DNA of 64,000 nt from Bacillota bacterium (GCA_021771915.1 JAETNY010000008.1:1-64000); one strand, 5' to 3'. Shown: positions 16,012-36,853, numbered from the stretch's first letter. Numbers and translations are program-made. The notes: generated from the sequence alone by a model not told the origin.

Positions 16012-18041
<2,030 letters not shown>

Positions 18042-18049
18042 ATATGTGC

Positions 18050-18080
18050 AACAAGGGGCGTTTAGCGTCCCCTTTGTTTT
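18050..18080 (+). terminator. Terminator or attenuator between recombinase and mobC
   Basis: AACAAGGGGCG and GCGTCCCCTTTGTT form a stem with a TTTA loop and end in TTTT. It separates the recombinase from mobC and makes an ATG start for mobC at 18044, upstream of the hairpin, unlikely. Confidence 0.6.
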
Positions 18081-18094
18081 GCGAGGAGGTTTTT

Positions 18095-18436
18095 ATTAAA
18101 GATACTAAAGAGAAAAAGACAGCAATTTATTTTAAGCTAACGGAGCAGGAACGGCGGCTTATAGAGCAGAAAATGGCGTTAGTCGGGGTTCACAATATGA
18201 GCGCCTATATCCGCAAGATGTGCATTGACGGTTACACTGTAAATCTGCAAATCCCGGAATTGAAAGAGTGCAGCAGGTATTTGCAGTCGGCTTCTAACAA
18301 TGTCAATCAGATTGCGAAAAGGCTTAATGCCGGCGGCAGATATTATGCCGGAGAGTTGGCAGAGGTTGAGAAATGTTTGCTGGAAAATAAAAAGCTGTTT
18401 GGTTCTATTGTTGAACAACTTTCAAAAATAAAATAA
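18095..18436 (+). CDS. mobC: MobC relaxosome protein with probable ATT start
   Basis: About 113 residues, of the MobC mobilisation family that helps the relaxase nick oriT. The ribbon-helix-helix-like N-terminus KKTAIYFKLTEQERRLIE, the middle MSAYIRKMCIDGY and the SASNNVNQIAKRLN motif are typical. The frame is open further upstream (TTG 18038, ATG 18044), but those codons lie in or before a hairpin. A strong GAGGAGG at 18083-18089 points instead to ATT 18095, exactly where relatives have ATG. The relaxase follows after 12 bases. Confidence 0.8.
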   Translation: MKDTKEKKTAIYFKLTEQERRLIEQKMALVGVHNMSAYIRKMCIDGYTVNLQIPELKECSRYLQSASNNVNQIAKRLNAGGRYYAGELAEVEKCLLENKKLFGSIVEQLSKIK

Positions 18437-18448
18437 GGCGGTGGTCAT

Positions 18449-19854
18449 ATAGCAACAACACGCTTAATGCCGCTGCATACCGGCAAGGGGCGAACGGTCG
18501 CCAGGGCTTTAGGCCGGATAACCGCCTATGTGGAAAACCCGGAGAAAACAGACGGCGGCGAATTGATTTCAGCTTATGCCTGCAATGCGGATATAGCGGA
18601 TAAGGAATTTCTTTTTGCCCAGCGGCAATATGAAAACATAACCGGGCGCAAGCAAAAAAGAACAACGTCATCGCCTATCATCTGCGGCAATCCTTTAAGC
18701 CGGGCGAGGTTACAGCGGAGTGGGCCAACAAAATCGGTTATGAGTTGGCTATGCGTCTGACTAAGGTGCAAAATCCTTTCATTGTCTGCACTCATATAGA
18801 TAAGGCGCATATTCACAGCCATATTGTCTTTTCAGCAGTCAATCTGGATTGCAGCAGGAAGTTTAGAAACTTCTGGCGCTCTTCATTTGCCATTCGCAGG
18901 ATTTCGGATATATTGTGTCTGGAGAATGGTCTTTCGGTGATTGCGGAGCCGCAGGCCAGCCGGGGCAGTTATGCTGATTGGCTGGAGGATAAAGGTGAAC
19001 AAAAACCACCCACAGTGCGCAGGCAGTTGGAGCAGATTATTGATGAAGTAATCGGGAAAAGCCAAAACTACAATGATTTTTTGACAAACCTGCAAACTGC
19101 CGGCATTGAGATTAAGCAGGGCAAAAATCCGGCTTTGAAGCTGCCGGGGACAAAGCGGTTTGTACGCTTAAAATCTTTGGGCGATGCGTATTCGGAGGCG
19201 GCAATCAAGGCCAGATTGTTGGGCAAAAAACAGCAGCGATTGGCGGAGAATAAGCCTAACCTGCTGATAGATATTCAGACTAAAATGCAGCAGACAAATT
19301 CACCGGGCTATGAGCGTTGGGCTAAGAAATTTAACCTCGAGGAAATGGCTAAAACGGTGATGTATTTACAGGAAAATGACCTGCTGGATTATGCGGTTCT
19401 GCAAGATGCCTGCGCCGACGCCAGCGAGAAATATAACGCAGCGGCAGCTAAAACCAAAGCCAACAGTGAGCGAATGAAAGAAATATCCGAGCTGCAAAAG
19501 CATATCGGAGCCTACCGCAAAAACCGGGATATTTATGCCGAGTACCGCAAGCTGCCGGCAAAGAAGCAGGCGGCATTTTATGAGAAATATCGCCATCAGA
19601 TTGTGCTGTGTGAAGCTGCCAAAAAGTTTTTTGACGAGCTGGGTTTGCATAAGCTGCTTGGCATACAAATGCTGAAGCAGGAGTATGCGGAGTTGCAGGC
19701 GGAGAATAAAAAGCTCTACCCGGAGCAGAAACAGTAGCGAACGAAAATGCTTGAGCTGCTGATTGCCCAGAGGGCAAGAAGCAATGTTGAGCGGATTTTG
19801 GGACTGCAAGATGTTGAGCCGGAGCGAGAAAAGCAGCGCCAACAGGAGCGTTAA
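18449..19854 (+). pseudogene. Relaxase (MobA/Nic type), broken by a frameshift and an amber codon
   Basis: This relaxase would nick oriT and pilot the strand. The N-terminus reads from ATA 18449 (normally ATG; the following ATTRLMPLHTGKGR fits the family). The frame must move back by one at the A6 run 18654-18659 to continue as NVIAYHLRQSFKPGE and then the metal-binding HIDKAHIHSH. The second frame ends at TAG 19735-19737, but homologous C-terminal sequence (LLIAQRARSNVERILG) continues in frame to TAA 19854. Three defects together (start, -1 indel, stop) argue for a decayed gene, though slippage on the A run cannot be excluded. Confidence 0.85.
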
Positions 19855-20258: not shown

Positions 20259-20286
20259 TTTACAAAATTCATAAAAACTGCTCTTT
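20259..20286 (+). promoter_or_regulatory. TcdR-type promoter of the sigma factor gene (probable autoregulation)
   Basis: TTTACA at 20259-20264 and CTCTTT at 20281-20286 are separated by 16 bases. As I recall the literature, promoters read by the TcdR/BotR/UviA sigma group have TTTACA and a CTCTTT-like -10 box. The same pair precedes the three hydrolase genes, so the factor probably activates its own gene. Confidence 0.75.
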
Positions 20287-20308: not shown

Positions 20309-20821
20309 ATGTTGATTGCACAAATTAAGCAAGCTTCCCTTGGTAATCAGCAAGAAATGTTAAACCTAATTAAAAAATTTGAGCCATTACTGAAAAAGTA
20401 TGCTAGAAAATTATATTATCCTGATGCTTATTGTGATTTGCGTTTATTTTTTATTGATTTAATTCATTATTTAGCTGATAACAAATTAAAGTATCCTTGC
20501 GACGCTTATATTGTTTCATATATTAATAAGGCTGTTGAACATTCTTATTATAAACTTTTGTTAAGAAAACATATTTCATTAGACGATTTGCCATTTGCCA
20601 GTTTAAGTGATGAAGAGGCTTATTTAGTTGAAAGCAAGTTAAGTGTCGATGATACATATGATAAGCTGTTGTTTGATGAATTGAAATTGATATTAACTGA
20701 TAAGGAGTATAAAGTTATTAAGAAACTATTTCTTGAAAATTGGCAAGTTCTTGATATTGCCAAGCATTATGGCGTATCAAGACAAAGCATAAATCAGACT
20801 AAACAACGGGCTTTAAAGTAA
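20309..20821 (+). CDS. TcdR/BotR/UviA-type (group V) RNA polymerase sigma factor
   Basis: A 170-residue sigma factor resembling the toxin and bacteriocin regulators of clostridia. Region 2 reads KKFEPLLKKYARKLYY, then DLRLFFIDLIHYL and CDAYIVSYINKAV, closely matching the TcdR layout. Region 4 contains the helix-turn-helix VLDIAKHYGVSRQSINQTKQ. The C-terminus stops soon after the second helix, a little shorter than TcdR. ATG 20309 is preceded by AAAGGAGGG. A holin gene follows, as in toxin loci where sigma factor and TcdE/UviB-type holin lie together. It probably recognises the TTTACA-N15/16-CTCTTT promoters nearby. Confidence 0.88.
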   Translation: MLIAQIKQASLGNQQEMLNLIKKFEPLLKKYARKLYYPDAYCDLRLFFIDLIHYLADNKLKYPCDAYIVSYINKAVEHSYYKLLLRKHISLDDLPFASLSDEEAYLVESKLSVDDTYDKLLFDELKLILTDKEYKVIKKLFLENWQVLDIAKHYGVSRQSINQTKQRALK

Positions 20822-21382: not shown

Positions 21383-21398
21383 ACTTTTAAAAAGCGTG

Positions 21399-21477
21399 TT
21401 TACAATTTTGAAAAAAATTGCTCTTTAATAGATAGACTTGCAAGTTGAATAAAAACAAAATCTATTTATTAAAGGAG
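21399..21477 (+). promoter_or_regulatory. TcdR-type promoter and hairpin leader of the C39-like hydrolase gene
   Basis: TTTACA (21399-21404), 16 bases, CTCTTT (21421-21426). Downstream, AATAGATAG (21427-21435) can pair with CTATTTATT (21462-21470), placing the ribosome binding site AAAGGAG (21471-21477) at the foot of the stem. The arrangement recurs, almost unchanged, at 27629 and 30044. Confidence 0.75.
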
Positions 21478-21487
21478 AGATGAGATT

Positions 21488-22408
21488 ATGGCAACAATGA
21501 AACCGAGTAGTACAGATTATAAGGTTTATCAAGGACCAGGTACAAACTTTGCAATTGTTGGCACTGTTAGTGGCAATGAGGATGTAACATTTATGTGGAA
21601 AGAAGGTTCTTGGATATATATTGAATACACTGTTGGTAATACAGGTTTTAAAAAATGTGGTTATGTTCAGTTAACTCAAATTAATGGTGTGGGTAATGTA
21701 ACATTTACTCCAACTATGTCTAATAGATATGTTGGTAGAGGGTGTATTCCTTTCTTTGGTCCTGGAAATAGGGGTTATAGCCATACTGATGCAATACCGC
21801 AAAAGGCTGTTGTTCAGTATACAGGAAAAAAGATTGGTAATTATGCATTTGTTCAATATAGCAGTAATCGTCGTTTTTGGATTTTTGATAATAATCTTAG
21901 TACAACAATGCCCACTACTGGCGGTTATTATACATTGCCAAATTTTTCATATAACTTTATTCAAGGTTCTAACGAGGACTGGAATAAGTTGAATCCAAAA
22001 TTTACTAGTAGTGGATGTGCGGTATGCTGCGCTGCTGATGTGGTGTCGTTTGCGGAGGGTAAATCTCTTGGCCCTGAAGCAATGTATGAAAGAAAAGTAT
22101 TTACATCAACAAGCATTGAATGTAATTGGCCTAATGCTTCTACGTTTCTTGATTGGACAGCTACTCAATATATACCACAATCACAGTATTTGGAACAAAT
22201 TAAATATCATATAAATAGTGGTTTTCCAGTTGTTATCAAACTAAAAAATAATCAACATTGGGTTGTTGCTTATGGATATAGTGAAGGAGCTTCTTCTGCT
22301 GAATATGTATATGTTAAGGACCCTATTAGTTCTAATAAGACAACTCTTAAAGATTCTTTAAGTACGCATTCTTATGATGCTTTAAAATTTGTGTATTTCA
22401 AGAAATAG
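21488..22408 (+). CDS. SH3-like repeats plus C39-like cysteine peptidase, no signal peptide
   Basis: A 306-residue protein. Two SH3b-like repeats (about residues 9-65 and 78-138) should bind cell wall. The C-terminal papain-like/C39-type domain has a candidate nucleophile Cys177 in SSGCAVCCAADVV, His257 in QHWVVAYGY and an Asp in VKDP. There is no N-terminal signal peptide or membrane segment, so export would need another route; the holin just upstream is the obvious one. It has the TcdR-type promoter and leader and is convergent with a lipoprotein gene across a shared terminator. Probable substrate: peptidoglycan cross-links, or a leader peptide. Confidence 0.8.
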   Translation: MATMKPSSTDYKVYQGPGTNFAIVGTVSGNEDVTFMWKEGSWIYIEYTVGNTGFKKCGYVQLTQINGVGNVTFTPTMSNRYVGRGCIPFFGPGNRGYSHTDAIPQKAVVQYTGKKIGNYAFVQYSSNRRFWIFDNNLSTTMPTTGGYYTLPNFSYNFIQGSNEDWNKLNPKFTSSGCAVCCAADVVSFAEGKSLGPEAMYERKVFTSTSIECNWPNASTFLDWTATQYIPQSQYLEQIKYHINSGFPVVIKLKNNQHWVVAYGYSEGASSAEYVYVKDPISSNKTTLKDSLSTHSYDALKFVYFKK

Positions 22409-22410
22409 TA

Positions 22411-22454
22411 AAATAAAATATCTTCCGGTTAAAGCCGGAAGATATTTTATTTTA
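22411..22454. terminator. Bidirectional terminator between hydrolase 1 and lipoprotein A
   Basis: A long inverted repeat centred on CTTCCGG/CCGGAAG, flanked by A-rich and T-rich arms (AATAAAATAT and ATATTTTATT), can stop transcription from both directions. It overlaps the end of the minus-strand gene. Confidence 0.85.
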
Positions 22455-23664
22455 CTTGCCAGCTAAGCTTTGAAGCGGAAATTTCGTAGGATTTATCACA
22501 TAGCCATTTGTCGTCAATTAGCTGTAAGCGTAGTGGATAATAACCATAATTAAAATGTGGATATTCTGCGCCCATTATAACAATAATTTGTTTTTCGCTG
22601 TTTTTCCAAATAAAGTAATCATCTGGCTGCCAGTTTAGCATTGTAATTGGCATACAGGCAATATTTAGTTTATATGCTAACCCCTCTGGCTGGTCAATAT
22701 AAGTCGGATAATCTTGTATAAAAAGATTATTAATGTAAAATTGGGCTAATTCATTAACAAACGCTTCATTATAGCATTGTTTAATAGCTTCGGTAGTTGT
22801 AAATTCTCGAATTAAATCGGCATAATCTTCGTCAGGTTGTTTTGTATTAATTATACCATAATAAATATCATAGTTATATTCCGGCGCATAAGTCGACACA
22901 TTAGAAAAAATTTTTCTTTCTGAATTTGGTATTATGTGAAAATTATCAGCTACATAAAGTTGATTTGCTTTGTTAGCTTTTGTTAGAGTATCTTCTAAAA
23001 TATTTTTTAATTCTGTTGGATTATAATAATAATCTTTTGGTTCTTGCTCTTGGGGGCTGAAACTTTCATCAAGTAACCATTGGTCATTTATTTTGGTTAA
23101 TGTTAATGGTAAGGTTGTTTCAATGCCGGTTAACATAAAATTACCTTTAAGCATAACTTGAAGTTTATCTTGTTTATTTATAATGATTTCTATTGGCTGA
23201 TGTTCCCATTTTATTAATGAGATTGGATAAGTCGCTAAATATCTGCATTGTAAAAGCTGATTATCATGAAATACATATTTGTTGCCATTAGATGTAAATA
23301 TATCCATTAAATATTGTTCAGCTAGAGGTGGAATAAATGTTTTTCTTATATATGTTTTTATATCATCAGTATTGTTAAATGTTTTTATTAGTTTCCAAAT
23401 ATCACCATTTGTGGGTAATGGTAATTGCTCTGATTCTACGATATAGCCATAAGATAGGTTTGATTCCTGTGTTAGAATATCATCATTTGTAGTTGAAAAT
23501 TGTCCTAGGTATATGAGATTTGCCATTTCTCCCTTGGTTAGTGTGTCATTAACAATTTGATAAACCTCATTTTGTGTGTAAAAATTATGTTTATTATCGT
23601 TACAACCAGATGAAAATAAAAATAAAATTAAAGTTACTAATAAAAAAATGTACAACTTTTTCAT
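22447..23664 (-). CDS. Lipoprotein A, candidate immunity protein for hydrolase 1
   Basis: A 405-residue lipoprotein: a hydrophobic signal ends in FSSGC, the lipobox Cys being about residue 20. The body has two related halves, each opening with a similar stretch (YTQNEVYQIVNDTLTK and YNPTELKNILEDTLTK), so an internal duplication is likely. No known family recognised. The N-terminal half resembles lipoprotein B. The start ATG 23664 follows GAGGTACGTGATT on the minus strand. It is convergent with the C39-like hydrolase, the same geometry as two other hydrolase/lipoprotein pairs. A surface lipoprotein that blocks or titrates the enzyme is an inference. Confidence 0.75.
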   Translation of the reverse strand: MKKLYIFLLVTLILFLFSSGCNDNKHNFYTQNEVYQIVNDTLTKGEMANLIYLGQFSTTNDDILTQESNLSYGYIVESEQLPLPTNGDIWKLIKTFNNTDDIKTYIRKTFIPPLAEQYLMDIFTSNGNKYVFHDNQLLQCRYLATYPISLIKWEHQPIEIIINKQDKLQVMLKGNFMLTGIETTLPLTLTKINDQWLLDESFSPQEQEPKDYYYNPTELKNILEDTLTKANKANQLYVADNFHIIPNSERKIFSNVSTYAPEYNYDIYYGIINTKQPDEDYADLIREFTTTEAIKQCYNEAFVNELAQFYINNLFIQDYPTYIDQPEGLAYKLNIACMPITMLNWQPDDYFIWKNSEKQIIVIMGAEYPHFNYGYYPLRLQLIDDKWLCDKSYEISASKLSWQVK

Positions 23665-23824
23665 AATCACGTACCTCGAAAAATATAAAATTAGAATCTT
23701 TATTCCAGTTGTTATCAGTATTGAGGGCATTTTTTCACTGTGACTAGTTATTATGACTAACAGATATTGTACCAGTTTTTTATCGCTTTCCAAATAATCC
23801 CCTTGACAAACGAAAACAATACGG

Positions 23825-24061
23825 TTATGCTCCTGAATTTTCGCTGTAAAATAACTGGTCATCTGGTGCTAATAACTGTTCATTTTTATTTTTGGTTAAG
23901 CCATAAAGACATACACTGTCAATGCTTGATGACCAAACAATTTTTTTCATGTCATTGTTGAAAGTTCTGTTGGCAGTATTGATTGTGGCAGTTATTGAAA
24001 GGTAAATAAAATTATTAGGACCGAAAATATATTCATTGTTGTGTTCTTCTTTAGTTGTCAA
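23825..24061 (-). CDS. Possible small frame between lipoproteins A and B
   Basis: A 78-residue frame overlaps the end of lipoprotein B by 11 bases, starting at TTG. It has no ribosome binding site and no signal peptide. It may be the displaced C-terminal end of a related lipoprotein or not a gene at all. The 386-base gap between lipoproteins A and B holds nothing else recognisable. Confidence 0.2.
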   Translation of the reverse strand: MTTKEEHNNEYIFGPNNFIYLSITATINTANRTFNNDMKKIVWSSSIDSVCLYGLTKNKNEQLLAPDDQLFYSENSGA

Positions 24062-25268
24062 TAGATTGAAATTCTAATTGTTTCAATTTATCATCAACAA
24101 ATGTTAGATTGATAACTTTATCGCCGGCCACATAAACCAACGTATTGTTATCAATCAGGGCGTAATCGGCTGTATGCTCATAAACGCCATAAATTATTGG
24201 CAGGCCATACGCAGGATTAATATTATCATAGGGCTTGCAATGATGAAACTTTTTTATAACACTTTCCATAGAATTGCCCAGGCGTATATTGCGAATTTCA
24301 GGCCAAAAATCGTTGGTTTGGGTTGTAATATTATTAACAGTATAATAACCGCTATTGTTCCAGTTTATCCAAGTTATAGAAAAATCAGCATAGTTATAAG
24401 TAGTGAAATCTGTGTTAGTTAAATATTCGCCTTTTTCTATATTTAATGGCTGACCATAAATTTCAATAAATTCTGCAGGTGTGATTTGGCCGTCAAAGGG
24501 AAATGTAATATCATCCATTGAAAAAGGCAAAATAGCTGGTACTGTGTCGAGCTTGCCTTGTGCAGCGTAGGATTCGTCGGTTAGCCATTTGTTGTTTACC
24601 TTGTATATATTTAACGGACGGTAGGTAGCGTTTTGGTTTTTCATAATTAGCACAATTTTATCTTGTGTGTTTAACCACACCTTGTAATCATCAAGCTGCC
24701 AAGAGCTTTGGCAAAGCTGTTCCCAGTTTTTATTGGTAAAATCTGCATAGTAATATTCAGCTGCTTCAACAATAAAGGCATCTCTAAACCATTCTCTGCT
24801 TGTATCATCATGGACAGGATATGCGTTTTTAACTTTTTCTACACGATGTAATATATCCTCAACAATATTTTGTACTTCTTTCTGTGTATAATATAAGTCG
24901 TATTCTTGCTGTTCCTGAGGATAGAAGCTTTTATTGGTTACCCACTGACCGTTTTTATAATTTAATGATAATGACAGATTGGCTATGGTGCCTGTTAAAA
25001 TAAATTCTCCTTGCAATATAACTTCCAACTTTGCCGGTTCATTTGTTATAATTTCCAAAGGTTGGTGCTGCCATTTTATTAAAGATGCGTTTAATACATT
25101 TTTATCCATAGTTTCTAAAACTTTTTGATTTGTTAATTCGGCTTGTGTTAGGGTTTTATCAATAATTTGATAAACTTCATCTGGAGTATAAGCCTTGGGG
25201 GGGGTATTTTTACAGCCAGTTATAAATATAGTTAATATTACTAATATAAAAATATAAATTTTTTTCAT
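24051..25268 (-). CDS. Lipoprotein B, paralogue of lipoprotein A
   Basis: A 405-residue lipoprotein with signal IFILVILTIFITGC. After the lipobox it shares with lipoprotein A the opening YTPDEVYQIIDKTLTQAEL, the phrase SLIKWQHQPLEI and the later YYTQKEVQNIVEDIL repeat. The C-terminal 170 residues differ and resemble a beta-rich domain. No function known. It is third in a likely minus-strand transcript from 27592 (29 bases after gene C). The start context CCTCT...ATG (GAGAGGTATAGTATTATG on the minus strand) is nearly identical to those of the other lipoprotein genes, evidence of cassette duplication. Confidence 0.75.
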   Translation of the reverse strand: MKKIYIFILVILTIFITGCKNTPPKAYTPDEVYQIIDKTLTQAELTNQKVLETMDKNVLNASLIKWQHQPLEIITNEPAKLEVILQGEFILTGTIANLSLSLNYKNGQWVTNKSFYPQEQQEYDLYYTQKEVQNIVEDILHRVEKVKNAYPVHDDTSREWFRDAFIVEAAEYYYADFTNKNWEQLCQSSWQLDDYKVWLNTQDKIVLIMKNQNATYRPLNIYKVNNKWLTDESYAAQGKLDTVPAILPFSMDDITFPFDGQITPAEFIEIYGQPLNIEKGEYLTNTDFTTYNYADFSITWINWNNSGYYTVNNITTQTNDFWPEIRNIRLGNSMESVIKKFHHCKPYDNINPAYGLPIIYGVYEHTADYALIDNNTLVYVAGDKVINLTFVDDKLKQLEFQSIDN

Positions 25269-25297
25269 AATACTATACCTCTCAATAAACAGATTAT

Positions 25298-26329
25298 TTA
25301 TTTTGTTACATTGCTGCTATTTGGTAAATCACTTTCCTTTATAATTTCCGGCACAAAATATTCATTTTGTGCCATTTCCAAATTAATACGCAGAAATTGC
25401 TTTGTATTATTGTGGTATTCTGTTATATAAACATAATTGTCATATATGAAAGCGTCAAAACTATGATATGGCGGTACATCATAAATTATTTTGACATCAC
25501 CATCCGCATAAAAGGCGGTCAGCATTTCGGCGTTGGGCATTGGTGGATCATAATATCGAAACGTACACCCCAGCTTTTTTGCCATAGTTTCTGTTTCATC
25601 AGGAAACATACCGTCAAAATTATGCCAGGCTGTTGATTCATTAATAGCAGCATAATTGCGGTAATAATTACCTGTTTCGTCAACTGAAATAATGGCGCTT
25701 TGGCCAACATCTAAAAGCTTGCGATTATTTTCCAATAACATTTGCTTAAGATAAGTTTGGCTTAACAATTCGTTAAACTGCCTGCGGTTAGAAAAGTTCT
25801 GCTCTTGATTACAAACTATGATAAAGCTTTGCCCTAGCTTGCTTTGCCAAATAATCTTTTTGCCAAGTGCCTCGCCAATGGAGCGCAGCGGCAAATACAG
25901 CGTATCGTTGTGCACTAAAGGAGCTGTATCAATATTTAGTTGCTCGTTGTTGACTAACATAACACTGCTGGACGGTTTGATTATGGTTTTATGATTGTTT
26001 AATGTGATGATTGCTTGTTGTTCGTTGCTATTCCATGCTACATTGGCGCCGCAGGCTTCACCAATTAATCGCAGTGGCAGCATTGTACGGCCATTTTCCA
26101 TTAATATAGGCAGGTTAGTAGCTTGGCGCTGACCGTTAATATAATATGCAGTTTCGTTATCCGACTGCTCTGTGAATATGGATTCGTTATAAACAGAGTC
26201 ATCATAAAATTTGGTTGATATACAAATAAAAAAGTTTGGCTGTTCTGTGATTTGCGCAAAAGCTGTGTTTGGCAGAAATACCCAGATGGATAATAATATT
26301 GAAAAAAATATTTGTTTATATGATTTCAT
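25298..26329 (-). CDS. Secreted protein with copper-amine-oxidase N-like domains (C)
   Basis: A 343-residue exported protein. A signal peptide (IFFSILLSIWVFLPNTAFA) precedes a copper-amine-oxidase N-terminal-like domain of the kind common in surface proteins of Bacillota (GRTMLPLRLIGEACGANVAW, then TLYLPLRSIGEALGKKIIW). The C-terminal half (about 180 residues) is of unknown type. These domains usually act as extracellular binding or scaffold modules, not oxidases. A GGAGG-type ribosome binding site precedes the ATG. It lies between paralogues D and B. Confidence 0.8.
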   Translation of the reverse strand: MKSYKQIFFSILLSIWVFLPNTAFAQITEQPNFFICISTKFYDDSVYNESIFTEQSDNETAYYINGQRQATNLPILMENGRTMLPLRLIGEACGANVAWNSNEQQAIITLNNHKTIIKPSSSVMLVNNEQLNIDTAPLVHNDTLYLPLRSIGEALGKKIIWQSKLGQSFIIVCNQEQNFSNRRQFNELLSQTYLKQMLLENNRKLLDVGQSAIISVDETGNYYRNYAAINESTAWHNFDGMFPDETETMAKKLGCTFRYYDPPMPNAEMLTAFYADGDVKIIYDVPPYHSFDAFIYDNYVYITEYHNNTKQFLRINLEMAQNEYFVPEIIKESDLPNSSNVTK

Positions 26330-26374
26330 AAAAAACCTCCAAAAAGTCCTAAAAATGTATCACAGGCTTTGTGA

Positions 26375-27592
26375 TTATTCTGGTAAAGAAAAAGTGTATT
26401 GCATATAACTGGCCTGCTTTTGTTGTTCAGTTGTTTCCATACGACGGTCATAACCGAAAATAGTTACTTTGTTGTTTTCAATTTGCCATTGCTGGAAAGT
26501 GCCAGCTACATCGAAACCATAAAAATAACCCGGTGTGCCCAGCTGATGTTTCGTTCCTGTGGCAAAATCATAATAAGTCAGATTAGTTTTGTTATAATCC
26601 CAAACGTCTTCATTGTCAAAATGATGTAATGTCAGAACACCATTTGTCAGGACTTGTATTGCGGCAAAATTAATTTCTTCTGTTAAAAAGCGCCAGTGCG
26701 CCTGGCGAATATTCTTATTGTCCAGGTAATACAAAGTAGTGCAGCCTCGTAAATCCCAACCATTGCTTTCATTGCGGCGCATCAGCCAGCCATTGGGCGT
26801 TTCCTGCCAAAAACAAACGCCGTTAGTAAACGTGCTGCTTTTATCTATTATGTCGGGAATATTTGGGTTTATTATTGGAGAGCCGCCATTATTTAAAAGC
26901 TGCGGTTCAAAATCAGCATAATATAAATCCTGCAAAAACAGTTGATTGTCATTAAGAAAAATAGTGATGTATTTATTGGCAAAAATAATGTTTTTTTCAT
27001 TATATAATAAGGAAAGACAGCAATCGTAAAAATGGTCGATACCGGAGGTGTTTGCTTCGGTAGGAAAATCGCTGTTTTTATCATACATAAATATCAAATT
27101 ATGTGGTAGTTTGTATGGTTCAGAATAGTAGGTTTGAAAATTCTCCAGCCAATCTACCTGCTTATTAAGTGTTTCACCAACAGCGCGCAGGGGTATCCAA
27201 ACAGTGCCGTTTTCTTCATAAGGTGCGGCAGCCATTTTTTTTGTTTGACCATTCAATAATATATCGGCACTGCCGATTTGCATTTGTATTTTTTGTCTAT
27301 TTTGTTCCAAAAAGATACTGCCTTGAGTATAATTTACCTGCCAACCCAAGTTTTCAGATATAAAGCGTAAAGGCAGCCAAACCATGCCATTACGCATTTT
27401 TACATTTGCTCCTGTTTTTAATTGTCCGTCAACAATGGCCTTATTGCTATCGGTTGATAAAATCAGACTGTTAGCATAGTTTTCTGCTGGTATGGCCGGA
27501 AAAATTGCTGTTATATTATCAGCGGCAAAAGCCATTTTATATGACAACAAACAGAATAAAGAAATTGCAACCAATAAGAAAAATCTTTTCAT
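26375..27592 (-). CDS. Secreted protein with copper-amine-oxidase N-like domains (D)
   Basis: A 405-residue exported protein related to C: signal peptide (FFLLVAISLFCLLSYKMAFA), then MVWLPLRFISENLGWQV and GTVWIPLRAVGETLNKQVDW repeats, then a long C-terminal domain rich in aromatic residues that may be a beta propeller. It is first in the minus-strand series D-C-B-A. Its start is only 37 bases from the TTTACA box of the M23 hydrolase promoter on the other strand, so the two genes are divergent and share a regulatory region. Confidence 0.8.
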   Translation of the reverse strand: MKRFFLLVAISLFCLLSYKMAFAADNITAIFPAIPAENYANSLILSTDSNKAIVDGQLKTGANVKMRNGMVWLPLRFISENLGWQVNYTQGSIFLEQNRQKIQMQIGSADILLNGQTKKMAAAPYEENGTVWIPLRAVGETLNKQVDWLENFQTYYSEPYKLPHNLIFMYDKNSDFPTEANTSGIDHFYDCCLSLLYNEKNIIFANKYITIFLNDNQLFLQDLYYADFEPQLLNNGGSPIINPNIPDIIDKSSTFTNGVCFWQETPNGWLMRRNESNGWDLRGCTTLYYLDNKNIRQAHWRFLTEEINFAAIQVLTNGVLTLHHFDNEDVWDYNKTNLTYYDFATGTKHQLGTPGYFYGFDVAGTFQQWQIENNKVTIFGYDRRMETTEQQKQASYMQYTFSLPE

Positions 27593-27628
27593 AAATACTA
27601 TACCTCACAAAAAAAATTTAAAAGTATG

Positions 27629-27702
27629 TTTACAAATTTGAAAAAATTACTCTTTAGTAGATAGACTTGCAGGTCAAATAAAAAATCTATTTATTAAAGG
27701 AG
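27629..27702 (+). promoter_or_regulatory. TcdR-type promoter and hairpin leader of the M23 hydrolase gene
   Basis: TTTACA (27629-27634), 15 bases, CTCTTT (27650-27655). AGTAGATAG (27656-27664) can pair with CTATTTATT (27687-27695), followed directly by AAAGGAG. It is nearly identical to the leaders at 21399 and 30044. Confidence 0.75.
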
Positions 27703-27712
27703 AAATGAAATT

Positions 27713-28750
27713 ATGTCTAAAATTACTGGAAATGCAACTGTATATTATGGTCCCAATCCGTCTACTTACAATTCAAATGGCTCGGTATTAAAATCAGGTG
27801 ATATTGTTACAGCGCTTTGGAAAGAAAATAATTATGTTCATATTGAATATACTTCTGGCAGTAAAAAAAAGCGTGGTTTTGTTGAGGCTGGGGTGATTAC
27901 TGTGCAAGAAAGCATTGCTGGTATTACTAATGCAAGAGCCGTTCGCTATGTAGGTATTGCCGGTAGCTCATATGATGGTCCTGGCACTAATTACATGGAG
28001 AACAAGCCTTTGCCGAAAGGTAAAAAGGTTTGGTTTGTCGGCCAAAAGCCAAATGGCTATGCTTGTATTGAGTATTCTATTGGTGCTAATGATGATAAAA
28101 ATAAAATCAGAGTTTATATGCTTGCCAGTAAATTGTCTGATAGCTTTAACATCGGTGGACAAACTTTTAAACAGGGTGATAAATTGCCGTCCGGTTATCC
28201 TTATGCAGGTAGAACCGTTAATCAGGGTTTTAATGATGAAAAAACAAGTTTAAGAGGTCATTTGGGTTATGATATAAGTGGTAAACAAGGTGATACTATT
28301 GTTGCTATTGAGGATGGTACTGTTGTAAGTACGACTCAGTCATTAAGTTCTACAACTTATAATGGACGTGTCGTTACTTTACAGCATAGTAAAAATGGCA
28401 AGACGTTTTATTCTTCTTATTGTCATTTGTCGGCTGTTTCCGTAAGTGTTGGCGATACGGTTAAAAAGAATGGCAAAATAGGTGAGATGGGCGGTTCTGG
28501 TGAAAATGGGGAAAATACTTTTGGGGTTCATCTGCATTTGGCTGTATATACAGGTCAAAAGTCTTCTTCTCCTAATGGCTATTGTGCTGCTATACCTCAT
28601 AAAAAAAGATTTGAAGAAGTTGCTGCCAACTATGCTAATCCATATTATTATGGTTCTAACACAACAAACTATCCTCGTTGTGGTGGCGTTAAATTTTATG
28701 ATCCTTATGCTGCAATAACAAGTGGTTATAGCGTATTTGACAAATGTTAA
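27713..28750 (+). CDS. SH3-like repeats plus M23 (LytM-type) endopeptidase, no signal peptide
   Basis: A 345-residue zinc metallopeptidase. Two SH3b-like repeats (about residues 5-62 and 75-140) come first. The M23 domain holds the zinc ligands His183 and Asp187 in GHLGYD, the catalytic His238 in CHLS, and His273/His275 in VHLHL. M23 enzymes cut peptidoglycan cross-bridges. The protein has no signal peptide. It shares its domain plan, promoter and leader with the C39-like protein at 21488, showing gain of different catalytic domains on one template. It is convergent with lipoprotein E. Confidence 0.85.
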   Translation: MSKITGNATVYYGPNPSTYNSNGSVLKSGDIVTALWKENNYVHIEYTSGSKKKRGFVEAGVITVQESIAGITNARAVRYVGIAGSSYDGPGTNYMENKPLPKGKKVWFVGQKPNGYACIEYSIGANDDKNKIRVYMLASKLSDSFNIGGQTFKQGDKLPSGYPYAGRTVNQGFNDEKTSLRGHLGYDISGKQGDTIVAIEDGTVVSTTQSLSSTTYNGRVVTLQHSKNGKTFYSSYCHLSAVSVSVGDTVKKNGKIGEMGGSGENGENTFGVHLHLAVYTGQKSSSPNGYCAAIPHKKRFEEVAANYANPYYYGSNTTNYPRCGGVKFYDPYAAITSGYSVFDKC

Positions 28751-28761
28751 AATGATTGCTA

Positions 28762-28788
28762 AGAGAGGGTATAACGCCATCTCTTTTT
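28762..28788. terminator. Terminator between hydrolase 2 and lipoprotein E
   Basis: An imperfect inverted repeat (AGAGAGGGT with GCCATCTCT) followed by TTTTT lies between the two convergent stops. Confidence 0.5.
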
Positions 28789-30007
28789 ATTGAATTTTGG
28801 CTGTAAGTCCGACTATAAATTGAACGCTATCACTGTTTTCCTGCCAAGTAAACAGAACCTGACCGTCTTCGGTAATAGATAATAAATTCAGGTTACAGGT
28901 ATAAGGAAACTCTAAAACCGTTCGCGGAGTCATTGTGGCAAAATCAACAACTATAATTCGTGAGCGTTCATTATATTCATTTAAAATAGGATTATCATAG
29001 TGCGTATCCCCACCGGGCAAGGGATTAGGCTCGGCAATTACATATGCTAAATACTCAGCATTGTAAACAGGGGCAGGCGTATCAGGTGAAACATTTAAAT
29101 CGTCAGGCAAGGTTTTATACTCTCCCTCAGTTTTATTGAGCAAATCCACCTGCCTAACATATATATTCCCATAACCATAGCCAATGTTTTCCTGAAAACA
29201 GGGAAATATTGTGTTGTTTTGTTTTTCCCAGACATTATACCAAAAATCACTCAAACTGCCGGCTTCGGTTTGCCAAATTTGCTCGCTGGCTAAATTTATC
29301 ACCCAAATTTCATAAGGGCTAGACGCATTACAAAGAAAATATATTTCTTCATCACCCGGCAGAAAATTCAAACATTTCGGTCCCAAATTAGGGTCGGCGT
29401 AATATTCATCATACCAATAAGGTGTGTTTTTAGTATTAAACAGCAGGTGATTTTCATTATTTGTTAGATTATAATAATTTAAGCCTGTAATCGGATTGTC
29501 ATAAACAATCTTCTGTAAATCCTCTGAAACAGTGTATTGAATCCAGTTATCAGGATATTCGTAGTTATTCATACCGTCAAACATTGGCTTTGGCAAAGCT
29601 GTTTTATCTGAAATAATTTGCAAATCAAAATTGACAGCGTAAAATTCCTGCTGATTGCCGATAATTATTTTATCATTACACACTCTGATTATTCTACTGT
29701 TGCCTAAATAAAGCCTTTGAGTTATTTGGTTGGATGATAAATCGTATAGCCATAGCATATTGTCATGACTATTGTCATAATAAAAGCTCCAAATTATTAT
29801 ATGGTTATTATCAATTTGGTTAGCGTGTAAAGAATAATAGTTTTGCAAATCTCCTGTTGCCCAATCTATTGTGGTAAAGCTGCCGACAAAAAGATTGTCG
29901 TCAATGGCAAGATTATCTTGCGGCGGTTCATCTTTGGAAACGATTGCGGTCGTACAGCCAGATAAAATTAACAATAGCATTAGGGAAAATATTAATAATC
30001 TTTTCAT
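28787..30007 (-). CDS. Lipoprotein E, beta-propeller-like, candidate immunity protein
   Basis: A 406-residue lipoprotein with lipobox LILSGC near residue 19. The mature part has repeated short blade-like segments (MLWLYDLSSNQITQRLYLG, YEIWVINLASEQIWQTEAG, SRIIVVDFATMTPRTVLEF) suggestive of a TolB-like beta propeller. No known family assigned. The start is ATG 30007 with GAGGT upstream. The gene is convergent with the M23 hydrolase and divergent from the CHAP hydrolase promoter 37 bases away, repeating the spacing seen at 27592/27629. Confidence 0.75.
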   Translation of the reverse strand: MKRLLIFSLMLLLILSGCTTAIVSKDEPPQDNLAIDDNLFVGSFTTIDWATGDLQNYYSLHANQIDNNHIIIWSFYYDNSHDNMLWLYDLSSNQITQRLYLGNSRIIRVCNDKIIIGNQQEFYAVNFDLQIISDKTALPKPMFDGMNNYEYPDNWIQYTVSEDLQKIVYDNPITGLNYYNLTNNENHLLFNTKNTPYWYDEYYADPNLGPKCLNFLPGDEEIYFLCNASSPYEIWVINLASEQIWQTEAGSLSDFWYNVWEKQNNTIFPCFQENIGYGYGNIYVRQVDLLNKTEGEYKTLPDDLNVSPDTPAPVYNAEYLAYVIAEPNPLPGGDTHYDNPILNEYNERSRIIVVDFATMTPRTVLEFPYTCNLNLLSITEDGQVLFTWQENSDSVQFIVGLTAKIQ

Positions 30008-30043
30008 AATACTATACCTCACAAAAAAAAATTAAAAAGTATG

Positions 30044-30118
30044 TTTACAATTTTGAAAAAAATTGCTCTTTAATAGATAGACTTGCAAGTTGAATAAAAA
30101 CTCTATTTATTAAAGGAG
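30044..30118 (+). promoter_or_regulatory. TcdR-type promoter and hairpin leader of the CHAP hydrolase gene
   Basis: TTTACA (30044-30049), 16 bases, CTCTTT (30066-30071). AATAGATAG (30072-30080) can pair with CTATTTATT (30103-30111), adjacent to AAAGGAG. It is almost base-for-base the same as the leader at 21399. Confidence 0.78.
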
Positions 30119-30128
30119 AGATGAAATT

Positions 30129-30698
30129 ATGGCACTTCACACTGGACAGTCTACATCTTTTGAGGATTCAATTTATTTTTCTGAGAACAATCCGTTTTAT
30201 AGAGGCGCATTGGTTGGTCAATGTACATGGTATTGTTGGTCTAAGGCTCACGCAAAGGCAACTGCATATCCTAGTAGAGGCATTAATGTGGAAAATATTC
30301 CCACAAGCGGTGCCGGACGTTGGATTGCGGATGCTAAAAATAAATATGAAATAGGTGATGATCCCAAACAGGATAGTATTGCTGTATGGATAAAGAAAGG
30401 TGGTACTGGTCATGTTGCCTATGTTGAAGATTATGATGAAAATACCAAAGAGGTATGTTTTTCCGAAGCTAATATGTATACTGGTGGCAACTCAAGTTGG
30501 GAAATTTATGTGGCAAAACAATATAGGGATTCAATAGCTACTAATGTTGCTAAGAATACCAGCAAGGTAAGTGTTTATAGTACTGCACCTGATGGAAAAG
30601 AAGGTAATGATGGGCTGTTTAAAAATAAAAAATTAGACGAATTTAAATCCAGAATTGGAATTAGTTGTCAATTTATTTATTTGACCCAACCTAAATAA
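30129..30698 (+). CDS. CHAP-domain amidase/endopeptidase, no signal peptide
   Basis: A 189-residue CHAP-domain peptidoglycan hydrolase. The catalytic Cys32 is in GQCTWYCW, His95 in GHVAYVEDY, and the third residue is probably Glu113 or Asn115 in SEANM. CHAP enzymes cleave N-acetylmuramoyl-L-alanine or peptide cross-bridges. Unlike its two neighbours it has no SH3 repeats. There is no signal peptide. It has the same promoter and leader as the other two and is convergent with lipoprotein F. It is the third hydrolase class in this module. Confidence 0.85.
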   Translation: MALHTGQSTSFEDSIYFSENNPFYRGALVGQCTWYCWSKAHAKATAYPSRGINVENIPTSGAGRWIADAKNKYEIGDDPKQDSIAVWIKKGGTGHVAYVEDYDENTKEVCFSEANMYTGGNSSWEIYVAKQYRDSIATNVAKNTSKVSVYSTAPDGKEGNDGLFKNKKLDEFKSRIGISCQFIYLTQPK

Positions 30699-30712
30699 GA
30701 ATAGTGTTTTTT

Positions 30713-30748
30713 AGTAATACTCCTTATTTTTAGGGAGTATTACTTTTA
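30713..30748. terminator. Bidirectional terminator between hydrolase 3 and lipoprotein F
   Basis: A perfect 11-bp stem (AGTAATACTCC with GGAGTATTACT) with a 10-base loop is flanked by T runs. It overlaps the end of the minus-strand lipoprotein gene. Confidence 0.85.
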
Positions 30749-31317
30749 TTTCGTTTATAGCTAGTAAATTTAGCATTTCCATTAACAATTTGGGCTGTAA
30801 TGTAGATATTGGAACTATAAGCATCTAAAGCATAATCTTCACAATATTCTAATAAAATTATTTTAATGTTTTGGGTATCAATAATTTCTGCATTTATGAA
30901 AGCATAAGATGTGCAACCTGTGCCCATGCCAATAGCTTGGGCTGTAATTATCTGGTTAGTAGTATCATATTCTCCTTCAAATTTATTTTCAAACCACTCA
31001 ATGGGCAGATTATAATCATCTATGTAGCTATTGAGAATTTCGTAAATATCTGCTATTGGAATATAGAATGTTTGTTCTGTTTCGTCAAACCAACTATCTC
31101 TTTCATGAAACATAGCAAAAGTATAAAGATTTTTTTCCGGTATGTCTTTTGTATCATTAAAATCACAATAAAATAAAGCTGCCTCAGAAAAATAATCTAC
31201 TATATCCTGCTCTGAATGGTTAGCAAGATATATTTCAGCCTCAGTTTGCTCATTTGTCTGACAAGATGTTAGGGTTATTAACAAAAGAATTAAAGATATT
31301 ATACAAAGTCTTTTCAT
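30730..31317 (-). CDS. Lipoprotein F, candidate immunity protein for the CHAP enzyme
   Basis: A 195-residue lipoprotein: signal LILLLITLTSC, then an acidic mature domain of unknown family (about 175 residues). No sequence kinship to lipoproteins A, B or E was seen, so the geometry rather than the sequence is conserved. It is convergent with the CHAP gene. The minus-strand start ATG 31317 follows AAGGAATGATTTT. Confidence 0.72.
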   Translation of the reverse strand: MKRLCIISLILLLITLTSCQTNEQTEAEIYLANHSEQDIVDYFSEAALFYCDFNDTKDIPEKNLYTFAMFHERDSWFDETEQTFYIPIADIYEILNSYIDDYNLPIEWFENKFEGEYDTTNQIITAQAIGMGTGCTSYAFINAEIIDTQNIKIILLEYCEDYALDAYSSNIYITAQIVNGNAKFTSYKRNKSNTP

Positions 31318-31373: not shown

Positions 31374-31398
31374 TTTACATTCATATTTTCTGCTCTTT
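31374..31398 (+). promoter_or_regulatory. Degenerate TcdR-type promoter without a gene
   Basis: TTTACA (31374-31379) and CTCTTT (31393-31398) occur just behind the start of lipoprotein F, where another hydrolase cassette would begin. Spacing is only 13 bases and no hydrolase follows. The 320-base gap 31318-31637 holds nothing else except AT-rich dyads near the next gene (TTATAA repeats about 31530-31550). Confidence 0.4.
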
Positions 31399-31637
31399 CT
31401 GTTTTTTCTATTGATCACTTCCTGTAAATCAGTATTGTATTTCACATAAATATGTAATGAAAAGCCTGAAAGGTAACGCATAAAAACAAAATATTTTAAT
31501 TAAACTGATATTTATTATAGCACTATTATTTTATAAGTTCAAGTTATAAAATTTAGTTGTTTGACGGCGTTCAAATTATAATTTTAACAAGTATATAATA
31601 TATATATAATCAATATTAAATTTTGTGTGGTGATATT

Positions 31638-32521: not shown

Positions 32522-33169
32522 TAAACAAAAATTGGACAATAGATAAAAATATATACAATATCAGATAAAATATATTTCAGCTAAGAATTAGTATACAATT
32601 CTCGGTATTGCTTAGGAGTTAGATAGTTTAATGAATAAGCAGGCCTTTCTTCATAAGCTTACAAAGCAGAGGAATAGGAAAATCTCCAGAAAGTTCCATA
32701 ATTATTTCATATTCTCTTTCTCTAAAGGTGCGAATACCTTTCGGGCGCCATTTCCTTTCACCTCGTAGCCTTTTTTTAATCTGGCTTCATTGATACGAGA
32801 AATTATGAGTTCCTTAATAAACTCTTCTTTGGACATAGATTGAAATTGCTCTAATTTTGTATAGGAGTCAAGAGGCTCAATTCTGGCAGATTCCTTTGCT
32901 GGAAGCAGATTATTATCTCTGTACATACGCATATAATCTCTGGCTGTATTTACAGTTATGCCATATTGCTCGGCAGCCTCCTGTTTGGAAAATTCATTGT
33001 TGTATATTCTACCTCCGATGTGTAATCTTTCTTGCTTGGTGTATTTCATTATGCCCTCCTGTCTATTGTTTGTTTGAAATTGTTTTAATTTAATTGTTGT
33101 TGTTTCAATTATATTATATATGCGGTTGATTTTCCCCTCCTTTGTGTCCAATTTTTGTTTGGCAGTACA
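32514..33169 (-). mobile_element. Internally deleted IS3-family element
   Basis: The ends share a perfect 16-bp inverted repeat (AAACAAAAATTGGACA at 32523-32538; its complement at 33145-33160) and finish in TG...CA. On the minus strand orfA is complete. orfB keeps only its first few codons (MELSGDFPIPLLCKLM) and, out of frame, its end (YSLNYLTPKQYRELY). The DDE catalytic core, roughly 0.8 kb, is lost. No target duplication is seen, and the flanks are unrelated gene fragments, so the element probably mediated a deletion. Confidence 0.85.
32702..33049 (-). CDS. IS3-family transposase OrfA
   Basis: A 115-residue helix-turn-helix protein (EAAEQYGITVNTARDYMRMY) with a C-terminal coiled coil, typical of IS3-family OrfA. 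Normally the ribosome frameshifts near its end into orfB to make the active transposase. Since orfB is deleted, this product can only bind the element ends. The start ATG 33049 follows GGAGGGCATA on the minus strand. Confidence 0.8.
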   Translation of the reverse strand: MKYTKQERLHIGGRIYNNEFSKQEAAEQYGITVNTARDYMRMYRDNNLLPAKESARIEPLDSYTKLEQFQSMSKEEFIKELIISRINEARLKKGYEVKGNGARKVFAPLEKENMK

Positions 33170-33594
33170 ACACAAGGCGTTACCAGTTGGGGGGGGAGCG
33201 TCTGGGAGAATATAAGCGGCACGATTATGTAACCGGCAAATATGAGGTTGGAGTCTTGCCGGAAGGCGTACCGGAGGAAATGGCGGAATTGTTGGCTGAA
33301 TTGCAGGAGGTTAAGTCAAAAAACGCTTTGACGGCAGCGGCCTTTTTTCACGCCAAGTTTGAGAATATTCATCCTTTTGCCGATGGTAATGGTCGCACTG
33401 GGCGCTTGGCAATGAACTATTTTCTGGTTCTGCACAATCACCCACCGATTATTATCCACGAGGAGGATAGAAAGAAATATTATGCGGCTTTGGAGGCTTG
33501 GGACGAAGAATTACAGTTGGAGCCGTTAAAGAGTTTTTTGCGAGAACAGACTGCCAAAACCTGGGCTAAGCAAATTCAAAGATATAAAATATAG
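33170..33594 (+). pseudogene. Fic-family AMP-transferase, N-terminal part missing
   Basis: The C-terminal 140 residues of a Fic protein, with the active-site motif HPFADGNGRTGR intact and the following NHPPIIIHEED region. Family members of this type are about 250 residues, with substrate-binding and ATP-clamping parts before RHDYVTG. Here the sequence starts right at the IS end with RRYQLGGERLGEYK. A G8 run occurs near 33189. An internal start could yield a protein with the catalytic loop, but regulation and binding would be lost. Confidence 0.75.
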
Positions 33595-33603
33595 AGTAAT
33601 TAT

Positions 33604-33645
33604 AAAGTGGTTTTCTTTTTTAGAGAGCCACTTTAATTTTTATGG
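33604..33645 (+). terminator. Terminator after the Fic fragment
   Basis: AAAGTGG pairs with CCACTTT around a T-rich loop and is followed by AATTTTTA. Confidence 0.55.
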
Positions 33646-33663
33646 TGGGGTGGTGATGAGTAT

Positions 33664-34782
33664 ACGGCAACAACAAGATTTATTCCGCTGCATACGGGCA
33701 AAGGCCGCAAAGCAGGCAAAGCTATAGCAGCTATTATTGATTATGTGGAGAACCCGGAAAAGACGGATAACGGCAATTTCATCAGCAGCTATGGTGCGAC
33801 AGCAGACTTGCTGATGCCGAATTTGCCCTGGCTCAAAGGATTTACCAAACCAAAAGAGGCAGGGAGCTAAAGGGAAATGATGTTATAGCCTGCCAAATCA
33901 AGCAGTCTTTTAAGCCGAGGGAGATAACCCCAAAGGAGGCTAACAGGCTAGGTTATGGGCTGGGTCTATATCGAAAATGGCTATTCGGTTATTGAGGAGC
34001 CGAAACGCCGCCGGGGTTTAAGCTATAACCGCTGGCAGGAGCAGCAGGGAATTGAAAACAAATCCTTGCACAGAGATGTGCTGCGGCAGTCCATAGATAA
34101 GGCGTTAGCTCAAAAGCCAACGGATTTTGAAGCATTGCTTAAACTGCTGCAAGTTGATAATATTGAGGTGGATAAGCGTAGCAAAAGCTGGCGCTTAAAA
34201 GCGGCAGACAGGAAACAGTTTACCAGACTAGGCAGTTTGGGCGAGGGCTATTCCAAAGCTGAATTGAAGATAGCTTTGACCTCTGCCAAAGCGCCTAAAG
34301 CAAAGGAAAAAATAAATCTACTGATAGATATTCAGCAGAAACTGGTCGAAGGTAAAGGCGGCGGCTATTCCCGTTGGGCAAGTGTGTTTAATCTAAAGCA
34401 GATGGCAAAAACCTATAACTATCTAAATGAAAATAACCTGTTTAGTTATGAGGAATTGGCTGTCAAAACTGCGGCAGCCAGCGAGCGTTTCAATGAGTTG
34501 TCAGGGCGAATCAAGACGGCGGAAAAGCGTATGGCGGAGATTGCCGTTCTGAAAACGCATATTATAAATTACGCCAAAACAAGAGAGTTTTATGTAGCAT
34601 ACAGGAAAGCTGGCTATTCCAAAAAGTTTGCTGCCGAATATTCCCGGCTGCTGACTGCAAAGAAAGCAGCTTATGGAGAATACCGGCAGGTCAGGGAAGA
34701 AATGAAAGAGCTTTTAACGGTTAAGGCCAATGTGGATAGTTTGCTGGAGATGGACGCAAACAAAGAAAAGGCAAATCAATGA
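33664..34782 (+). pseudogene. Second relaxase, frameshifted and lacking its catalytic core
   Basis: A relaxase copy with ACG in the start position (ACG followed by ATTRFIPLHTGKGR). A one-base deletion near 33800 shifts the frame before ADAEFALAQRIY. The second segment runs to GNDVIACQIKQSFKPRE and then breaks near 33955. The metal-binding HIDKAHIHSH region, roughly 70 residues, is gone. The rest (ENGYSVIEEPKRRRG to the C-terminus) is intact. It cannot nick DNA. It differs clearly in sequence from the relaxase at 18.4 kb, so it comes from a second element. Confidence 0.85.
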
Positions 34783-36846: not shown

Positions 36847-36853
36847 AAAATGA

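What the first reader, a model, noticed from the sequence alone, without database searches (positions are those of the whole stretch)
22447..31317. Convergent hydrolase/lipoprotein pairing suggests matched immunity genes
Each hydrolase gene ends tail-to-tail with a lipoprotein gene (A, E, F) across a terminator, and the next cassette starts 37 bases behind the lipoprotein start with nearly the same sequence. The lipoproteins are unrelated to each other, as are the catalytic domains, while the geometry is fixed. That is what swapping of effector-immunity units would leave.
Basis: inference. Interest (0 to 1): 0.72.

Follow-up and report, generated by a model that had tools for sequence, protein, structure and literature searches.

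The report
Swappable wall-enzyme and lipoprotein weapon cassettes
A mobile element in a gut bacterium of the Peptococcaceae carries a set of cell-wall-cutting enzymes, probably released through a phage-type membrane pore to kill competitors, and each enzyme gene sits tail-to-tail with a membrane-anchored protein that probably protects the producer; enzyme-protector units have been swapped, lost and collected between related strains.

Summary
The geometry is real: three leaderless peptidoglycan hydrolases (C39-like, M23, CHAP) each run tail-to-tail into an unrelated lipoprotein gene (A, E, F), with 38/36/31-nt gaps. They follow a TcdR/UviA-type sigma factor (SRQ motif) and a TcdE-type holin, and all have TTTACA-N15/16-CTCTTT promoters. 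The module lies beside a serine recombinase and a relaxase.

In related strains the same lipoprotein type sits beside the same hydrolase type: M23a/E twice in different slots, M23b/B twice in different slots, CHAP/F four times with matched divergence (68/70, 57/51, 62/49, 99/99 % identity). All 8 intact hydrolases have an intact lipoprotein; the reverse fails (B orphaned here, A and C alone in another species, dN/dS 0.16-0.2). Lipoprotein A is predicted to fold like IseA, a known inhibitor of papain-fold wall endopeptidases, and it faces a papain-fold hydrolase. Six similar convergent pairs were picked by eye in distant Clostridia; a strict test on distant loci alone was not significant.

Best reading: a holin-released, cassette-based bacteriolysin system with matched lipoprotein immunity; a new variant of the UviA/UviB-Bcn5 kind. 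Immunity is inferred. Solo chromosomal homologues of A, E and F, and hitch-hiking between promoter repeats, keep rivals alive.

The parts
20259..20286 (+). TcdR-type promoter of the sigma gene, TTTACA-N16-CTCTTT (autoregulation inferred)
   Evidence: 3 exact and 2 one-mismatch matches in the window; shuffles mean 0.77, none of 100 reaches 5; also present before sigma in L024, L046, L047
20309..20821 (+). Sigma factor of the TcdR/BotR/UviA type, SRQ motif in region 4.2
   Evidence: Pfam Sigma70_r4; NCBIfam BotR weak, E 7e-4; SRQ visible, marker described in PMC4031146
20951..21382 (+). Holin, TIGR01593 'toxin secretion/phage lysis holin' (start probably 20987)
   Evidence: E 9.1e-23; Pfam Phage_holin_4_1 E 2.7e-32
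21387..21487 (+). Cassette 1 promoter/leader (-35 at 21399)
21488..22408 (+). Leaderless effector: N-terminal SH3 + Peptidase_C39_2
   Evidence: no signal peptide in the sequence
22409..22455 (.). Bidirectional terminator hairpin between C39 and A
   Evidence: MFE -24.1
22447..23664 (-). Lipoprotein A: two IseA-like domains; candidate immunity to the C39 effector
   Evidence: lipobox SSGC; AlphaFold2 model pLDDT 79.6, Foldseek best hits IseA and IseA complexes; Pfam Endopep_inhib subthreshold
23740..24036 (-). Fragments of an E2-type (E-like) gene, a decayed former array member
   Evidence: three pieces, 58-68% identity to E2 of L046
24051..25268 (-). Lipoprotein B, A-like at its N-terminus; orphan here, partner of an M23b hydrolase in L046 and L023
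25298..26329 (-). C, secreted protein with Cu_amine_oxidN1 domain, no hydrolase partner seen
26375..27592 (-). D, secreted protein with Cu_amine_oxidN1 domain, 27% identical to C
27613..27712 (+). Cassette 2 promoter/leader (TTTACA-N15-CTCTTT, -35 at 27629)
27713..28750 (+). Leaderless effector: SH3 region + Peptidase_M23 (type M23a)
   Evidence: E 9e-20
28787..30007 (-). Lipoprotein E, candidate immunity to M23a
   Evidence: lipobox LSGC; E-like lipoprotein beside M23a again in L047
30028..30128 (+). Cassette 3 promoter/leader (-35 at 30044)
30129..30698 (+). Leaderless effector: CHAP domain
   Evidence: E 6.7e-12
30713..30744 (+). Terminator hairpin between CHAP and F
30730..31317 (-). Lipoprotein F, candidate immunity to CHAP
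   Evidence: lipobox LTSC; paired with CHAP in all four loci; model pLDDT 78 without significant PDB match
31374..31504 (+). Relic of a further cassette start (TTTACA-N13-CTCTTT and the leader repeat D5)
16203..19737 (+). Mobilisation block: large serine recombinase, NikA/MobC, relaxase (frameshifted here)
   Evidence: homologous to L024 with an intact relaxase

Best explanation
This is a mobile, cassette-based antibacterial module. A TcdR/UviA-type sigma factor switches on itself and each effector gene from TTTACA-CTCTTT promoters. Effectors are signal-less peptidoglycan hydrolases, two with N-terminal SH3 wall-binding regions, that leave the cell through (or by lysis with) the TcdE-type holin and digest the walls of neighbours lacking protection. 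The lipoprotein converging on each effector is exported separately and held on the outer face of the producer's membrane, where it inhibits its own effector (A by an IseA-like plug on a papain-fold active site). Promoter/leader repeats at unit boundaries let effector-immunity units be exchanged by homologous recombination; hydrolases decay first and their immunity genes stay as orphans (B, probably C and D, G005's A). Shown: gene content, promoter motifs, pairing in relatives, unit movement, orphan retention, IseA-like predicted fold. Inferred: sigma control, holin release, killing, specific inhibition, lipoprotein expression independent of the sigma factor.
For: Sigma, holin and effector promoters; SRQ and TTTACA markers from PMC4031146. 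Pairing: window C39/A, M23a/E, CHAP/F; L046 M23b/B, CHAP/F; L047 M23a/E, CHAP/F; G008/L023 M23b remnant/B, CHAP/F. M23a/E is in slot 2 here and slot 1 in L047; M23b/B is in slot 1 in L046 and next to CHAP in L023. CHAP and F co-diverge (68/70, 57/51, 62/49, 99/99 % id) while sigma stays 92-97% (dS about 0.12-0.36 versus about 1 for CHAP). Asymmetry: 8 of 8 intact hydrolases have an intact lipoprotein; in G008 M23b is deleted to an 80-aa remnant while B is intact; window B is under constraint without M23b (dN/dS 0.18) and so is G005's lone A (0.16). IseA: Foldseek E 5.5e-5, 6.4e-5 and 5.1e-4 to IseA, IseA-CwlO and IseA-LytE; IseA blocks LytE's active site (PMC13204101). Distant pairs: M23+SH3, CHAP, C39, phage-lysozyme domains each facing an unrelated lipoprotein in Syntrophomonas, Lutispora and C. 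manihotivorum.
Against: No functional data. C39/A seen once. Solo A-like (G007 x2), F-like (G007 x2) and E-like (G002) chromosomal genes without hydrolases. Convergent genes between repeats would travel together without functional coupling. B (partly IseA-like) pairs with an M23 metallopeptidase, so the IseA logic does not transfer simply. In distant loci alone, promoter-linked genes are not significantly enriched for convergent lipoproteins by a strict automatic test (2/7 versus 14/81, p = 0.6); 11/16 versus 14/81 (p = 9e-5) holds only with the related loci included, which are not independent.
Confidence: 0.68

Rival explanations
1. Unmatched envelope guards: the lipoproteins are general inhibitors or wall-stress proteins recruited from the host genus' repertoire that dampen autolysis while the holin is open, with no specific partner. 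They sit in the array because all genes between promoter repeats are carried along.
For: Solo chromosomal homologues of A, E and F and many Cu_amine_oxidN1 relatives in the genus; IseA itself is a general autolysin inhibitor of B. subtilis (PMC13204101); runs of several secreted proteins (A-B-C-D) without hydrolases.
Against: The hydrolase-to-lipoprotein type match in every related unit, movement as pairs, and co-divergence of CHAP and F.
Confidence: 0.17
2. Prophage or phage-derived lysis cassette remnant: holin plus endolysins, with the lipoproteins as unrelated lysogenic-conversion genes.
For: Holin family shared with phages; the hydrolase domains occur in endolysins.
Against: No phage structural genes recognised among the ORFs around the module; several hydrolases each with its own sigma-type promoter; neighbours are a recombinase and a relaxase; same layout in distant genera next to the same sigma type.
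Confidence: 0.05
3. Mobilisation aid: the hydrolases open walls for transfer of the mobile element and the lipoproteins act as exclusion or self-protection factors.
For: Serine recombinase, NikA/MobC and relaxase directly upstream.
Against: The sigma-holin-effector arrangement recurs in loci without these mobilisation genes nearby; hydrolases lack signal peptides and differ between otherwise closely related elements; no conjugation pilus genes recognised in the ORFs listed.
Confidence: 0.06

Closest known systems
UviA/UviB-Bcn5 bacteriocin system of Clostridium perfringens plasmid pIP404 and relatives
   Same: TcdR-group sigma factor, holin, signal-less effector with SH3b and a peptidoglycan-active domain, mobile replicon (PMC9527704); effectors with SH3 + M14, as in Bcn5, occur in the relatives L051 and L055
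   Different: Holin is of the TcdE/TIGR01593 type, not BhlA/UviB; several interchangeable effectors (C39, M23, CHAP), each with its own promoter and a convergent lipoprotein; the paper on Bcn5 does not mention immunity (0 occurrences)
TcdR/TcdE toxin secretion modules of pathogenic clostridia (PaLoc type)
   Same: Sigma factor group, TTTACA -35 box, holin family, signal-less cargo
   Different: Cargo here is wall hydrolases with putative immunity genes, not host-directed toxins
Bacteriolysins (lysostaphin, zoocin A)
   Same: Secreted M23 hydrolase with a wall-binding domain, used against competitors
   Different: Those are Sec-secreted and, from general knowledge, their immunity works by cell-wall modification; here putative immunity is a lipoprotein inhibitor and the SH3 region is N-terminal
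IseA (YoeB), DL-endopeptidase inhibitor of Bacillus subtilis
   Same: Predicted fold of lipoprotein A; inhibitor of a papain-fold wall endopeptidase (PMC13204101)
   Different: A is a lipoprotein with two such domains, on a mobile element, facing a C39-like enzyme; sequence match subthreshold (E 0.027, best member 0.004)
T6SS peptidoglycan-degrading effector/immunity pairs and orphan immunity arrays
   Same: Polymorphic wall-degrading effectors with adjacent envelope immunity proteins; retained orphan immunity genes (compare PMC12247911, PMC8189183, listed)
   Different: No injection machine; Gram-positive lineage; lipoprotein partners; convergent gene order

Membership tests
TcdR-related (group 5) sigma factors | Sigma-70 region 4 with SRQ motif in region 4.2 | tested here: met
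   VSRQSINQTKQRAL; marker from PMC4031146; Pfam Sigma70_r4
TcdR-related (group 5) sigma factors | TTTACA -35 elements at own and target promoters | tested here: met
   (all three cassettes and the sigma gene itself)
TcdR-related (group 5) sigma factors | Directs RNA polymerase to those promoters; interchangeable with TcdR or UviA | not testable with these tools
   needs a transcription assay
TcdE-type holin | Match to TIGR01593 above cut-off | tested here: met
   80.6 bits vs cut-off 40.2
Bcn5 family bacteriocins | M14 carboxypeptidase-like domain with SH3b | tested here: not met
   window effectors carry C39, M23 or CHAP; M14 + SH3 found only in relatives L051 and L055
Bcn5/UviAB system | BhlA-family holin UviB | tested here: not met
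   holin is Phage_holin_4_1/TIGR01593
IseA/Endopep_inhib (PF16800) | Sequence match above the gathering score | tested here: not met
   14.9 bits vs 29.9
IseA fold | Structural similarity to IseA | tested here: met
   top hits IseA, prob 1.00, TMt 0.49-0.53 for one domain
IseA function | Inhibits a wall endopeptidase | not testable with these tools
   needs an enzyme assay with the C39 effector
Effector-immunity pairs | Immunity gene adjacent to and co-inherited with its effector | tested here: met
   M23a/E x2, M23b/B x2, CHAP/F x4; C39/A only once
Effector-immunity pairs | Effector not found without immunity; immunity can be orphaned | tested here: met
   8/8 intact hydrolases paired in four loci of close relatives; orphan A, B, C
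Effector-immunity pairs | Specific binding and protection | not testable with these tools
   bench assay needed

The most novel reading that the evidence does not exclude
TcdR-type sigma plus holin modules are, across Clostridia, primarily a polymorphic antibacterial secretion system: wall-degrading effectors in promoter-bounded cassettes, each neutralised by its own membrane-anchored lipoprotein of unrelated fold (IseA-like, leucine-rich repeat, propeller), exchanged as units by repeat recombination. The holin-secreted clostridial toxins would then be a derived use of an interbacterial weapon.
Probability: 0.35. Interest if true: 0.82.

Novelty: new variant of a known kind. Interest (0 to 1): 0.62.

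Why it matters
How producers of holin-released bacteriocins avoid killing themselves is not addressed in the paper on holin-released Bcn5 read here. This locus offers testable candidates: for C39/A a specific mechanism (an IseA-fold inhibitor) and for M23a/M23b a built-in specificity test. If right, it defines a cassette weapon in gut Peptococcaceae, links it to other Clostridia, and gives a search rule (SRQ sigma, TTTACA-CTCTTT, signal-less hydrolase, convergent lipoprotein) for new wall-degrading antibacterials and their inhibitors.

Tried and rejected
Viral contigs (IMG/VR) with the CHAP and C39 proteins: no relatives. PDB sequence search with the A family and the E family: chance hits only. 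Fold search for F: nothing significant, weak NTF2-like/VirB8-like. Sigma search in the class (43 genomes) found only one further genome; the rest came from the phylum sample and the named genome scan. A strict automatic enrichment test of promoter plus convergent lipoprotein in distant loci alone was not significant. Annotated plasmid relatives of the sigma factor added no usable pair; the hits on Paraclostridium sordellii plasmids were not opened because those are virulence plasmids. Considered and dropped: phage remnant, conjugative wall-opening enzymes, chance repeat. The lipoproteins' own promoter could not be identified by consensus scan.

Full report
OBSERVATION. ORF calling and sequence reading confirm three + strand hydrolase genes that converge on minus-strand lipoprotein genes: C39-like 21488-22408 on A (22447-23664), M23 27713-28750 on E (28787-30007) and CHAP 30129-30698 on F (30730-31317). 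The gaps are 38, 36 and 31 nt and hold hairpins. The hydrolase starts share a promoter/leader of about 100 nt, 85-90% identical, and these are the only three copies in the genome. The -35 box lies 37 nt behind the start of D and of E. Behind A come fragments of another array gene (23740-24036) and then B, C and D; behind F lies a degenerate promoter relic.

CONTEXT. Upstream are a sigma factor (20309-20821) and a holin matching TIGR01593 'toxin secretion/phage lysis holin'. The repeated promoter reads TTTACA-N16-CTCTTT, also in front of the sigma gene; five matches with at most one mismatch were found in the window against 0.77 expected, and no shuffle reached five. The cassette 2 copy has N15. 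The sigma factor carries the SRQ motif reported as unique to the TcdR group, whose -35 element is TTTACA (PMC4031146); SRQ is seen. The CTCTTT -10 element is recalled from general knowledge of TcdR promoters and was not found in the papers read. The hydrolases have no signal peptide and the lipoproteins do (sequence). Upstream again lie a serine recombinase, NikA/MobC and a relaxase. Relatives named are MAGs labelled uncultured Peptococcaceae (L048 = G008) and uncultured Eubacteriales iMGMC-47 (L046, L047).

PAIRING TEST. L046 has sigma-holin-M23b><B, E2, C, CHAP><F; L047 has sigma-holin-M23a><E, C, CHAP><F; G008/L023 has M23b remnant><B and CHAP><F. M23a and M23b are different enzymes (37% id). 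Hydrolase type predicts lipoprotein type in every unit. M23a/E is in slot 2 here and slot 1 in L047; M23b/B is in slot 1 in L046 and beside CHAP in L023. CHAP and F diverge together (68/70, 57/51, 62/49, 99/99 % identity) while sigma is 92-97% identical; dS is about 0.12-0.36 for sigma and about 1 for CHAP, so the alleles at the end of the array have a different history from the flanks. All eight intact hydrolases have an intact lipoprotein; lipoproteins often lack a hydrolase. In G008 the M23b gene is cut down to an 80-aa remnant while B is intact. In the window B stands alone and is under purifying selection (dN/dS 0.18), and G005 carries A (96% id, dN/dS 0.16) and C beside a transposase fragment with no hydrolase.

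IMMUNITY MECHANISM. An AlphaFold2 model of A (pLDDT 79.6) finds IseA first in the PDB (E 5.5e-5), with the IseA-CwlO and IseA-LytE complexes. IseA inhibits DL-endopeptidases and blocks the active site of LytE (PMC13204101). A appears to have two such domains (repeated secondary-structure pattern) and faces a C39-like, papain-fold enzyme. Pfam gave the same family below its cut-off.

OUTSIDE THE GENUS. Sigma relatives in other Clostridia sit with holins, TTTACA promoters and signal-less effectors. By eye, six effectors face convergent lipoproteins: M23+SH3 (L051), CHAP (L054), C39 facing a leucine-rich-repeat lipoprotein (L052), a phage-lysozyme domain (L069), and two effectors without Pfam hits (L049 facing a BNR-repeat lipoprotein, L075); Bcn5-like SH3+M14 proteins (L055) and a similar SH3-repeat protein (L044) have a same-strand lipoprotein next to them. 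These were picked by eye. Automatic counts are significant only with the related loci included (p 9e-5, not independent) and not in distant loci alone (p 0.6).

WEAKNESSES. A-, E- and F-like genes exist alone on chromosomes of G007 and G002; these may be resident resistance genes, the source of the immunity genes, or a sign that the families do something else. Genes between promoter repeats would be co-inherited without functional coupling; the retention of lipoproteins after hydrolase loss argues against that being the whole story. C39/A is one instance. B pairs with an M23 enzyme although its N-terminal part resembles A. L046 and L047 come from one MAG and L023/L046 share near-identical CHAP/F alleles, so the four loci are not four independent samples.

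KNOWN OR NEW. It works like the UviA/UviB-Bcn5 bacteriocins and TcdR/TcdE modules (PMC9527704; PMC4885068) but is not a Bcn5 system (no M14 in the window's effectors, a different holin family). Multiple swappable hydrolase cassettes with convergent lipoproteins were not found described in the papers searched. New variant of a known kind.

Noticed in passing
36304-38195 in the window; L023:1036-2964; L050:14567-16418; L044:12732-14586; L053:11151-12471: A triad of ECF-like sigma factor, DUF4367-type membrane protein and (in most copies) a small secreted protein recurs next to the TcdR-type locus in distant genera; it may be an upstream sensor or a second module.
   Followed up: no
18467-19737: The relaxase gene is split by a frameshift in the window but intact (459 aa) in L024, so this copy may be unable to mobilise itself, or it is a sequencing error.
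   Followed up: partly
31374-31504: Degenerate cassette promoter and leader behind F with no gene attached, probably the scar of a lost cassette.
   Followed up: partly
L026:10915-13506: Lipoprotein gene A and the C gene stand alone beside a transposase fragment in G005: an apparent immunity-only island.
   Followed up: partly
L025, L091, L092 (G007): G007 lacks the sigma factor and the CHAP and C39 effectors but carries two A-like and two F-like genes, a possible resistant non-producer.
   Followed up: partly
33142-34782: Fic-domain gene and a second relaxase-like C-terminal fragment to the right of the module, suggesting nested or decayed mobile elements.
   Followed up: no
L023/L024, L046/L047: Assembly contigs of relatives break at or near the repeated promoters, so short-read assemblies probably under-report these cassettes.
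   Followed up: no
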